A DNA stretch of 64,000 nt from NCBI RefSeq assembly GCF_000378105.1, contig NZ_KB899255.1, forward strand, positions 1 through 64,000. Reading direction: 5' to 3'. Both the position numbers and the translations under genes were made by a program. The notes under the pieces are model-generated. The model was not told where the DNA came from. It was given only the letters and a program-made list of their open reading frames with translations, and ran no database searches. This DNA comes from Rubritalea marina DSM 17716. GTDB taxonomy: Bacteria; Verrucomicrobiota; Verrucomicrobiia; Verrucomicrobiales; Akkermansiaceae. Shown one piece after another: positions 1 through 59,651 of the stretch. The first letter of the stretch is position 1; the number at the start of each line of letters is the position of its first letter.

Positions 1-564
1 AGATGGCTTAAAATTCAATAATTTCCACACATCTGATATCACCCTTCACGATATCGGATTATCACTAATTGTGCATTATCGTCCCTTCTTAAGCTCACGG
101 AATGATCTTGCTTGAGGTTACCAATGTCATGTGAGCCTAGCACCATGTATCATGGGGGCGCTTACGTAAATGGATCACTTTCCCTTCGACTTATGTGCTT
201 CCCCTTCAGGGAAGGTGTATTTAATGAAGGGGCCTAGGGTTGCGGCTCATGCTTCGCCTTACCCTAGGCTGGTATGGGATTCGCCTTTGGCGAATGGGTA
301 ATTCCTAAGGGTCTTGTCTAGGTAGGGAGGTCAAAAACCTCTAAAGTCTAGGTAGAGTAATGAAAAGTCAGACAGACTAATTTAGAGGGATCCTAGGATT
401 TATATACGTTGTAGCGTCATAGATCAGGCTATGGAGTTTAGGATATGTTGAGTAGTGAGTTTTTTGTGTAGTGTTGGGTGTTTGCTAGACGCTGTTTGGT
501 TTATGTGAGGAATGCAGCCAAATGAACCTTGTCCGTCACGGTGGGGCCTTTTATGAACTAGGGC
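1..564. other. gene-free left flank
   Basis: No convincing coding region is seen. The stretch is moderately AT-rich and full of short palindromes. It holds a three-hairpin REP-like unit (203-300), a small hairpin at 327-341 (gaggt / acctc) and two copies of gtctaggtag about 33 bases apart. Near 385-396 the string agacagacta is shared with the direct repeats at 23.8 and 24.4 kb. The overlapping frames that open near 520 run through the next gene in another frame and look spurious. Confidence 0.6.
203..300 (+). repeat. REP-like repeat unit with three hairpins (copy A)
   Basis: Three hairpins lie in tandem. A small one is at 203-215 (ccttc/gaagg). A core one is at 232-269 (gcctagggt/accctaggc). 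The third is at 279-295 (attcgcc, loop ttt, ggcgaat). They are linked by a TATTTA-like spacer and by GCTGGTAT after the core, and the unit ends in GGGTA. The units flanking the transposase at 59 kb have the same order of hairpins and the same linkers GCTGGTAT, CCTTTGG and GGGTA, so this is a non-autonomous copy of the same family. The family assignment is by eye. Confidence 0.7.
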
Positions 565-58103: not shown

Positions 58104-58212
58104 TCGGCTGCGCTTTTGGATGATCGTCGTAGCGGTACTTTGTTATTGTAATGGTCTTAGAGATGGGTGATTATGTTAGTTGATCGTCTATCTAACTCCC
58201 ACATTATCTACT

Positions 58213-58890
58213 ATGAGAAATTATACAATTTATGCTGGCTGCTTAGCCTCTGGCCTTATGCTGAGCGCTGTGAATGCTGCAGTTCTGGTAGCTGCCGATG
58301 GCCAGGACACGGCCTACACAGTCCTCACCAACGACCTGCTCGAAACTAATCTATCGAATGCGATCGATGCGCTCACGCCGAATGCTGGTGAGAATACAGC
58401 TGCAGGTGGTAATGACTTCACGGTGCTAGCCAATGGTGCTTTTGGTGATATTTCTACCGATGGTCGCTTTGAAAGTTACGTGATCCAAGATGGCGTGGTG
58501 ACCTATGAACTTGATGTTAGTACCAACACGCTGGGCTACGACATTTCCTCCATTATCACATACGCAGGGTGGGCGGACAACAACCGCGGCACTCAAGCCT
58601 ACACGGTCAGTTACTCCGTTGTTGGCGACTCTGGCTTCACAGACATCACTACGGTCAACAACACTCCCGATCTCTTTACCCAAGAAAGAACCACCATCAC
58701 TGAAAACAGTACTGGTATTCTAGCAACGGGGGTGGATGCCGTGCGATTTACTTTTGGTACCCAACAGTTCTCCGGTGTGGGTTATAAAGAACTCGATGTG
58801 GTGGGCTCCGCCACTGTACCAGAACCAAGTTCTAGCGCCCTCATCGGGCTAGGTTCTCTAGCACTCCTTGCTCGTCGTAAGCGAAGCTAG
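58213..58890 (+). CDS. PEP-CTERM sorted secreted protein
   Basis: About 225 residues from the ATG at 58213. The signal peptide (TIYAGCLASGLMLSAVNA) leads to a beta-rich domain with Thr/Asn-rich strands. The C-terminus VPEPSSSALIGLGSLALLARRKRS is a PEP-CTERM signal (PEP, hydrophobic helix, Arg/Lys tail) for exosortase-dependent surface sorting. The exosortase itself is not in the window. The protein is probably an exopolysaccharide or surface component. A terminator follows. Confidence 0.88.
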   Translation: MRNYTIYAGCLASGLMLSAVNAAVLVAADGQDTAYTVLTNDLLETNLSNAIDALTPNAGENTAAGGNDFTVLANGAFGDISTDGRFESYVIQDGVVTYELDVSTNTLGYDISSIITYAGWADNNRGTQAYTVSYSVVGDSGFTDITTVNNTPDLFTQERTTITENSTGILATGVDAVRFTFGTQQFSGVGYKELDVVGSATVPEPSSSALIGLGSLALLARRKRS

Positions 58891-58980: not shown

Positions 58981-59071
58981 GGCTCTAAAGGAGCCAAAGA
59001 TACCAGCATGGGGTGAAGCGGGAGCGCCACCCCATGGAATAGATAAAGAAACAGCGAGAGCTGAAGGCTCG
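58981..59071 (-). repeat. REP-like repeat unit, left copy at the transposase
   Basis: Read on the minus strand it has the same three hairpins as the other copies: cgagccttcagctctcg (59055-59071), the core catggggtg...caccccatg (59007-59036) and ggctctaaaggagcc (58981-58995). The 38 bases at 58999-59036 are the reverse complement of 59588-59625 with only two mismatches. It lies just past the 3' end of the transposase gene. Confidence 0.85.
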
Positions 59072-59080
59072 ACAGATAGG

Positions 59081-59533
59081 CTAATCCCAAACGTATTTTT
59101 CATCCCATTCGATTCCATATTTTCTGAGAATTTTTCGATACTCATCTTGGAATGATTGTTGTCGGTGATGTTCCTCTTGCTTGTCGATGTAGCGAAGCAG
59201 AGCATCGAGATCTTTCGGGCTCAGCGAAAACGCTCCGTATCCCCGTTGCCATTGAAACTGTTTCAACGAGTTTGATTGCGACTTGAACCATTTTGAAGAA
59301 CTAGATTTCAGTTCACGGATCAAGTCTGATACTGCCAAAGTGCGCGATAGCCGAACCGCTATGTGCACATGGTCATCGACCCCACCCACACGATAGCATT
59401 CACAATCGTGATGCCTCACGGATTGCGCTAGATAAGCATGTAGAGCCTCGCGATGTTCTGAACAAATCCATGGCCGACGCTCTTTGGTGCTAAAGATTAC
59501 GTGAAGCAAGTTGTGCGAGAGAGATTGGGGCAT
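59081..59533 (-). CDS. REP-associated tyrosine transposase (IS200-like, Y1)
   Basis: The 150-residue protein has the HUH motif as His55-Val-His57 (GVDDHVHIAV) and the catalytic Tyr115 in LLRYIDKQEEHHRQQSFQDEY, the tyrosine/HHR arrangement of RAYT enzymes. It starts MPQSLSHNLLHVIFSTKERRPWI as in the family. It nicks single-stranded DNA near hairpins and joins by a 5'-phosphotyrosine. All key residues appear intact, so it may be active. Confidence 0.93.
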   Translation of the reverse strand: MPQSLSHNLLHVIFSTKERRPWICSEHREALHAYLAQSVRHHDCECYRVGGVDDHVHIAVRLSRTLAVSDLIRELKSSSSKWFKSQSNSLKQFQWQRGYGAFSLSPKDLDALLRYIDKQEEHHRQQSFQDEYRKILRKYGIEWDEKYVWD

Positions 59534-59550
59534 TACTCCATCTTATCTCA

Positions 59551-59651
59551 CGAGCTTTCAGCTCTCGATATTTATTTTCACCGGGATCATGGGGTGGCGC
59601 TAGCGCTTCACCCCATGCTGGTATCGGCCACACCTTTGGTGTGAGGGGGTA
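59551..59651 (+). repeat. REP-like repeat unit, right copy at the transposase
   Basis: On the plus strand it has hairpins cgagctttcagctctcg (59551-59567), the core at 59588-59617 (catggggtg...caccccatg) and cacacctttggtgtg (59629-59643), with the linker GCTGGTAT and the end GGGGGTA. It begins 18 bases upstream of the transposase start. It is the mirror image of the 58981-59071 copy. Confidence 0.85.

What the first reader, a model, noticed from the sequence alone, without database searches (positions are those of the whole stretch)
58981..59651. RAYT transposase between two mirror-image, three-hairpin repeat units
The two flanking units share the same three hairpins in inverted orientation (38-base core with two mismatches). 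The HUH and Tyr residues are intact. This is a good candidate for a domesticated or still mobile REP/RAYT system in Verrucomicrobiota, with a repeat design of small hairpin, core, then CCTTTGG-type hairpin that I do not recognise from Pseudomonas or E. coli BIMEs.
Basis: partly seen in the sequence, partly recalled or inferred. Interest (0 to 1): 0.75.

Follow-up and report, generated by a model that had tools for sequence, protein, structure and literature searches.

The report
IS200-like transposase with three-hairpin repeats
A small single-strand-DNA-cutting enzyme gene sits between two mirror-image, ~100-base repeats that each fold into three hairpins, and the same repeat lies scattered between genes in this genome and across several bacterial phyla wherever the enzyme occurs, so an enzyme group reported to have no partner repeats turns out to have its own, structurally distinctive family.

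Summary
An intact 150-aa HUH/Tyr transposase (59081-59533, minus strand) lies between two inverted ~100-nt units, each with a small hairpin (H1), a core hairpin and a small hairpin (H3). The label 'RAYT' needs correcting. The protein has Y---Q--HH, DHVH and WQ motifs, i.e. TnpA_Y1 subclass 1.2 of Quentin et al. 2018, an IS200-like class for which that paper lists 'REP: no'. A covariance model of the unit finds it on both sides, correctly oriented, at 51 of 77 homologous TnpA loci and on at least one side at 70, in Verrucomicrobiota, Planctomycetota, Acidobacteriota and Bacteroidota. In 58 related genomes units accompany TnpA (41/41 with TnpA have units, 3/17 without; p = 7e-11). Helices covary. 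Each unit carries the same short, unit-specific 'foot' after H1 and after H3. One relative holds nine REPIN-like mini-elements whose homology ends at H1. Best reading: a REPtron/REPIN-type system built on a class-1 TnpA, with a new repeat design and no GTAG. Mobility is inferred from dispersal; cleavage was not tested.

The parts
59081..59533 (-). tnpA, 150 aa, Y1 HUH transposase (TnpA_Y1 subclass 1.2 by motifs); D54-H55-V56-H57, W95-Q96, Y115-IDK-Q119-EE-H122-H123
   Evidence: Pfam Y1_Tnp 7e-25, NCBIfam IS200/IS605 above cut-off, motifs invariant or nearly so in 42 homologues, AF2 fold matches IS608/ISDra2 TnpA at Z about 15
58981..59080 (+). left three-hairpin unit (A subfamily)
   Evidence: R1 model 70.9 bits; DNA fold z -6.07
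58981..58995 (+). H1 of left unit, GGCTCTAAAGGAGCC
58999..59002 (+). foot GATA 3' of H1 (matches the foot after H3)
59007..59036 (+). core hairpin CATGGGGTG...CACCCCATG, preceded by AG, which is invariant in the 35-unit alignment
59058..59070 (+). H3 of left unit, GAGCTGAAGGCTC
59075..59078 (+). foot GATA 3' of H3
59542..59645 (-). right three-hairpin unit (A subfamily), inverted
   Evidence: R1 76.5 bits; DNA fold z -4.98
59629..59643 (-). H1 of right unit, CACACCAAAGGTGTG read on the minus strand
59622..59625 (-). foot GATA 3' of H1 (minus strand)
59588..59617 (-). core hairpin of right unit
59552..59564 (-). H3 of right unit, GAGCTGAAAGCTC
59544..59547 (-). foot GATA 3' of H3 (minus strand)
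190..295 (-). further three-hairpin unit in the window without a transposase (B1 subfamily, core CCTAGGGT); 97% identical to the unit at G000:C20:45638-45743
   Evidence: R1 73.6 bits; B1 search; DNA fold z -5.30

Best explanation
This is a REPtron-like element: a subclass 1.2 Y1 transposase flanked by its own inverted REP-like units. Each unit is two copies of a 'small triloop hairpin + short foot' module in direct orientation, flanking a larger core hairpin preceded by AG. Most likely the TnpA, presumably a dimer as in IS608, recognises these hairpins when they are single-stranded (lagging-strand template or extruded), nicks with Y115 at a site set by the unit-specific foot, and moves or copies units, inverted unit pairs and occasionally the gene-bearing composite into intergenic DNA. 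Shown here: anatomy, covariation, genome-wide dispersal, co-occurrence with TnpA, matched feet, and dispersed mini-elements whose homology ends at H1. Inferred: hairpin binding, the nick position, the single-strand route and present-day activity of this copy.
For: 29 units in the own genome at E <= 0.01, 27 of them away from the only copy of this TnpA, 28 of 29 outside ORFs of 150 aa or more. At 77 homologous TnpA loci with both flanks, 51 have a unit on both sides in the same inverted arrangement and 19 on one side; upstream units 68+/15-, downstream 62-/14+, distant ones 38/37. Leaving out the 16 loci used to train the model: 36 of 61 both, 18 one, 7 none (counted by hand). 41/41 TnpA-positive and 3/17 TnpA-negative related genomes have units, Fisher p = 6.7e-11. 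Covariation 0.603 against 0.194 shuffled and 0.552 against 0.184 on held-out loci. Inverted arms chosen without using structure fold at median z -3.1, 75% below -2, controls 0.08 and 0%. Feet after H1 and H3 match within a unit: 3.9 nt against 2.6 permuted; held-out, one per locus, 4.1 against 2.7 +/- 0.12, 0 of 2000. Nine mini-elements (unit +, ~65 nt, unit -) in genome G052 share sequence from H1 to H1 and no flanks. In G057 (L042) a 68-nt direct array repeats hairpin-foot-core, so the H3 of one unit serves as the H1 of the next. Unit and TnpA similarity correlate (Mantel 0.275, 0 of 2000). The fold is an IS200-type HUH nuclease.
Against: No empty site was obtained: the one attempt failed for lack of synteny. 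No binding or cleavage data. In the own genome the B-type units have no cognate TnpA; in sister genome G005 a TnpA with B-like units is frameshifted, so some units are orphans or fossils. Three of 17 TnpA-negative genomes still have units. The co-occurrence is partly built in, since a TnpA locus normally brings two units, and related genomes are not independent. Copies are not near-identical in the own genome apart from the three closest B1 units, which share flanks and so may be copies of a larger repeat.
Confidence: 0.78

Rival explanations
1. An ordinary insertion sequence of the IS200/IS605 kind with unusual terminal inverted repeats; scattered units are decayed ends and MITE-like internal deletions of it.
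For: NCBIfam calls it IS200/IS605 TnpA above cut-off. Fold is nearer IS608/ISDra2 (Z about 15) than E. coli RAYT 4er8 (Z 11.0). Mini-elements in G052 have the same ends as the gene-bearing form. Genome G007 has two 95%-identical TnpA copies 5 kb apart.
Against: One copy here; the other copies compared in G007 are 42-64% identical to each other. Units outnumber TnpA many-fold, mostly alone, in arrays or in divergent pairs rather than as whole-element remnants. IS200/IS605 ends are unlike hairpins in the same orientation, not inverted copies of one unit (general knowledge of the family). No tnpB beside the gene. Only 2 of 72,556 plasmids hold a homologue.
Confidence: 0.17
2. The units are cis-regulatory or chromosome-structuring elements (terminators, mRNA ends, supercoiling sites) and TnpA is a domesticated housekeeping nuclease acting on them, no longer a mobility enzyme.
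For: Intergenic location, low copy number of the enzyme, rarity on plasmids. The enzyme is kept intact at 44-65% identity to the window copy across phyla with invariant catalytic residues.
Against: Presence/absence changes inside one genus together with TnpA; different flanks of closely similar mini-elements; arrays and inverted pairs typical of mobile REPs.
Confidence: 0.05

Closest known systems
TnpA_Y1 subclass 1.2 (Quentin et al. 2018, PMC6006769)
   Same: Y---Q--HH, DH[IV]H, WQ, about 148-150 aa, low copy number, divergent copies; also in Bacteroidota
   Different: The paper lists no REP, generally no IS200-type terminal structures, and mostly Cyanobacteria and Bacteroidetes. Here most loci, Bacteroidota included, carry three-hairpin units. 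Its REP search started from GTAG/GTGG-footed hairpins, which these units lack, although the authors also inspected by eye.
RAYT / TnpA_REP with GTAG REPs, REPINs and BIMEs (E. coli, Pseudomonas)
   Same: Single low-copy Y1 gene flanked by inverted repeats that are dispersed between genes as singles, inverted pairs and arrays
   Different: TnpA class 1 rather than class 2; ~100-nt units of three hairpins instead of 20-40-nt single hairpins; matched unit-specific feet 3' of two small hairpins instead of one 5' GTAG
TIRtrons / TIRYT (Di Nocera et al. 2013, PMC3733652)
   Same: Y1 gene between long terminal inverted repeats, some of them repeated in the genome as dimers or clusters, also in Acidobacteria
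   Different: Quentin et al. place all 26 TIRYTs in class 2 (2.1, 2.2, 2.5); those TIRs share GGGGWSAS or nothing; no conserved three-hairpin design reported
IS200/IS605 (IS608, ISDra2)
   Same: Catalytic fold and residues; hairpins with short guide or cleavage tetranucleotides
   Different: Units inverted and the same at both ends; no tnpB; foot repeated twice in every unit

Membership tests
TnpA_Y1 subclass 1.2 | Y motif Y---Q--HH | tested here: met
   Y115, Q119, H122, H123 invariant in 42 homologues
TnpA_Y1 subclass 1.2 | DH[IV]H and WQ motifs, about 148 aa | tested here: met
   D54-H-V-H57, W95-Q96, 150 aa
TnpA_Y1 subclass 1.2 | low genomic copy number, divergent copies | tested here: met
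   1 copy here, 0-8 matches per relative; copies in G007 42-64% identical except one 95% pair
TnpA_Y1 subclass 1.2 | no REP association (as published, a description rather than a definition) | tested here: not met
   70 of 77 loci have at least one flanking unit, 51 both
RAYT / TnpA_REP (class 2) | Y---NP motif | tested here: not met
   YIDKQ in this protein; Q119 invariant in homologues
RAYT / TnpA_REP (class 2) | REP with GT[AG]G at the 5' foot of the hairpin | tested here: not met
   AG is the only invariant residue pair before the core; feet vary (GATA, CGTCC, AATCA and others)
REPtron / REPIN architecture | Y1 gene flanked by inverted repeats that are dispersed in intergenic DNA | tested here: met
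REPtron / REPIN architecture | short mobile pair of inverted repeats without the gene | tested here: met
   nine mini-elements in G052 with unrelated flanks; in the own genome only C11 and the C8 array resemble it
IS200/IS605 insertion sequence (subclass 1.1) | several near-identical copies per genome | tested here: not met
   single copy; genome 95.5% complete
IS200/IS605 insertion sequence (subclass 1.1) | TnpA fold with HUH and Tyr | tested here: met
IS200/IS605 insertion sequence (subclass 1.1) | single-strand excision and insertion 3' of a tetranucleotide | not testable with these tools
   needs biochemistry; no empty site obtained

The most novel reading that the evidence does not exclude
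REP systems arose or were recruited more than once: beside class-2 RAYTs with GTAG REPs there is a widespread class-1 (subclass 1.2) REP system in the Verrucomicrobiota/Planctomycetota/Acidobacteriota/Bacteroidota, whose units carry a readable, unit-specific recognition code (matched feet after two small hairpins) that co-varies within the unit.
Probability: 0.6. Interest if true: 0.72.

Novelty: new variant of a known kind. Interest (0 to 1): 0.62.

Why it matters
How REPs spread is a long-standing open question studied almost only with class-2 RAYTs and one GTAG foot. Here is a second lineage of enzyme with its own repeats in poorly studied phyla, with many natural foot variants and clean mini-elements, so recognition rules can be read from sequence and then tested. 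It also revises a published statement that subclass 1.2 has no REPs, and gives a model that annotates many otherwise unexplained intergenic hairpins.

Tried and rejected
A strict 32-nt core pattern with 3 mismatches found nothing because its spacing was wrong; BLAST and the covariance model replaced it. The simple left-right similarity test suggested that Bacteroidota lack units; the covariance model, not trained on them, found units at 20 of 21 Bacteroidota/Ignavibacteria loci, so that reading was dropped. Empty-site search G017 against G029: left flank 83% identical, right flank not syntenic, no conclusion. The idea that the mobile segment runs from foot to foot, leaving H1 behind, fits the 68- and 83-nt arrays but not the G052 mini-elements and A-type solo units, which include H1; the nick site is therefore left open. 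IS110 check: the PF01548 hits are a different IS from the one abutting three units. Covariation on A4 is biased because most rows were picked by a hairpin parser, hence the tests; the alignment was itself fitted to the model, so it leans towards the structure.

Full report
Observation. Two arms (58999-59036, 59588-59625) are inverted copies of 38 nt with two mismatches, and each ~100-nt unit folds as single-stranded DNA into three hairpins (z -6.1 and -5.0). The ORF 59081-59533 (-) is intact: Pfam Y1_Tnp 7e-25, IS200/IS605 in NCBIfam above its cut-off, with HUH and Tyr aligned to IS608 and ISDra2 TnpA. The AlphaFold model (pLDDT 89) matches IS608/ISDra2/IS200 TnpA at Z about 15 and the E. coli REP-bound RAYT 4er8 at Z 11.0.

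A nucleotide search found two further copies of the unit without a transposase and, beside each of them, a diverged unit with a different core. A search with one of those gave a second subfamily, again without transposase. A covariance model built from 35 units finds 29 units in this genome at E <= 0.01; 28 of 29 do not overlap an ORF of 150 aa or more. This TnpA occurs once in the genome. So the unit is neither unique nor confined to transposase ends.

Which enzyme. The motifs Y115-IDK-Q119-EE-HH, DHVH and WQ and the length of 150 aa are those listed for TnpA_Y1 subclass 1.2 by Quentin et al. 2018 (PMC6006769), not the Y---NP of class-2 RAYTs. That paper lists 'REP: no' for 1.2 and 'generally without' IS200-type ends. 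Its automatic REP search started from GTAG/GTGG-footed hairpins, which these units lack.

Architecture across phyla. Named homologues come from Verrucomicrobiota, Planctomycetota, Acidobacteriota, Bacteroidota and others. Without any structural assumption, 51 of 101 TnpA loci have left and right flanks more alike (inverted) than 99% of cross-locus pairs. With the model, 51 of 77 loci have a unit on both sides in the same inverted arrangement and 19 on one side. Orientation is biased only next to the gene: 68+/15- upstream, 62-/14+ downstream, 38/37 elsewhere. Removing the 16 loci whose units trained the model leaves 36 of 61 both, 18 one and 7 none (my count). Bacteroidota/Ignavibacteria were not in the training set; 20 of 21 have at least one unit. 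The unit is small hairpin with a triloop (H1), about 10 nt ending in AG, core hairpin, about 20-25 nt of variable sequence, small triloop hairpin (H3), foot. Covariation is strong: 19 of 22 pairs change on both sides, score 0.603 against 0.194 shuffled and at most 0.144 for slid partners; on held-out loci 22 of 22 and 0.552 against 0.184. As most training units were chosen by a hairpin parser, the cleaner test is: arms picked by similarity only, training loci excluded, median z -3.1 against 0.08 for control pieces.

Link to the enzyme. Among 58 related genomes all 41 with TnpA have units and 14 of 17 without TnpA have none (Fisher p = 6.7e-11). Unit similarity follows TnpA similarity (Mantel 0.275, 0 of 2000), and left and right units of one locus resemble each other more than any other unit in 37 of 49 loci.

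Matched feet. The few bases after H1 and after H3 agree within a unit and differ between units: GATA/GATA in the window, CGTCC/CGTCC in L107, AATCA/AATCA in L105. Mean longest shared word is 3.9 against 2.6 in permuted pairings; on held-out units, one per locus, 4.1 against 2.7 +/- 0.12, 0 of 2000. The stems of H1 and H3 may differ while the feet agree, so this looks like more than a recent duplication. Direct arrays of 68 nt in G057 (L042) and 83 nt in L078 repeat hairpin-foot-core, so that one hairpin serves two units.

Mobility. In G052 nine mini-elements consist of a plus unit, ~65 nt and a minus unit. Their homology starts and stops at the outer base of H1 on both sides, flanks are unrelated and no target duplication is evident by eye. 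In the own genome solo units end at H1 and just after the H3 foot. The C8 array alternates +,-,+,-. I could not get an empty site. In sister genome G005 a frameshifted TnpA sits between B-like units, which explains how B-type units here could be orphans.

Mechanism (inferred). By analogy with IS608/ISDra2, TnpA would bind the small hairpins in single-stranded DNA and use Y115 to nick at a site defined by the foot, then join the liberated strand elsewhere. The doubled, matched foot suggests that both small hairpins are enzyme sites; the role of the core is unknown. Which phosphodiester is cut, whether single units or only pairs move, and whether this copy is active are not shown.

Placement. 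It works like a REPtron/REPIN system, but the enzyme is not a member of the class-2 RAYTs. I file it as a new variant: a class-1 (subclass 1.2) REP system with three-hairpin units. TIRtrons (PMC3733652) are the nearest published idea. Six literature searches in the open-access library found no description of this unit; the Bertels 2017 RAYT classification did not turn up there and was not read.

Noticed in passing
own genome C26:268-379, C2:298014-298122, C8:169354-169473 (L190, L194, L196): An insertion sequence ends exactly at the AG|core boundary of three units with different cores, sharing over 90 identical nt. At the C26 contig end it encodes MEQIKYQLEVGVDVAKNSLRVA, which looks like the N-terminus of an IS110-type (bridge-RNA) transposase that would be targeting these repeats.
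   Followed up: partly
own genome C7:34-159, C22:42136-42246, C17:72379-72507 (L237-L239): A different IS110-family element (PF01548) preceded by ACAAGATAGAATGAGAAGGTGAAG, in two of the three cases at a contig end.
   Followed up: partly
own genome C11:98134-98233 and C5:111229-111328 (L188, L193): A second short palindromic repeat (CTTCGCTAAAGCTTCG..GGACACGG) sits between H1 and the core of two units, apparently another REP family nested in this one.
   Followed up: no
own genome C4:108762, C10:40292, C15:878, C15:82278, C18:65232, C5:199182; C10:77174: Several long ORFs (about 200-420 aa) hold split Y1_Tnp matches, and one 1528-aa open frame holds a Y1 fragment: a second, larger kind of Y1 protein in the same genome.
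   Followed up: no
genome G007 contig C2, 286000-500000 (L199-L205): Very dense field of units, often divergent pairs (- then +) about 100 nt apart, around two 95%-identical TnpA copies.
   Followed up: partly
own genome C9:190-295, C20:45638, C3:1495: Three B1 units share longer flanking sequence on both sides, so they may sit inside a larger repeated element.
   Followed up: no
window 58180-58890: PEP-CTERM sorting-signal protein directly beside the element.
   Followed up: no
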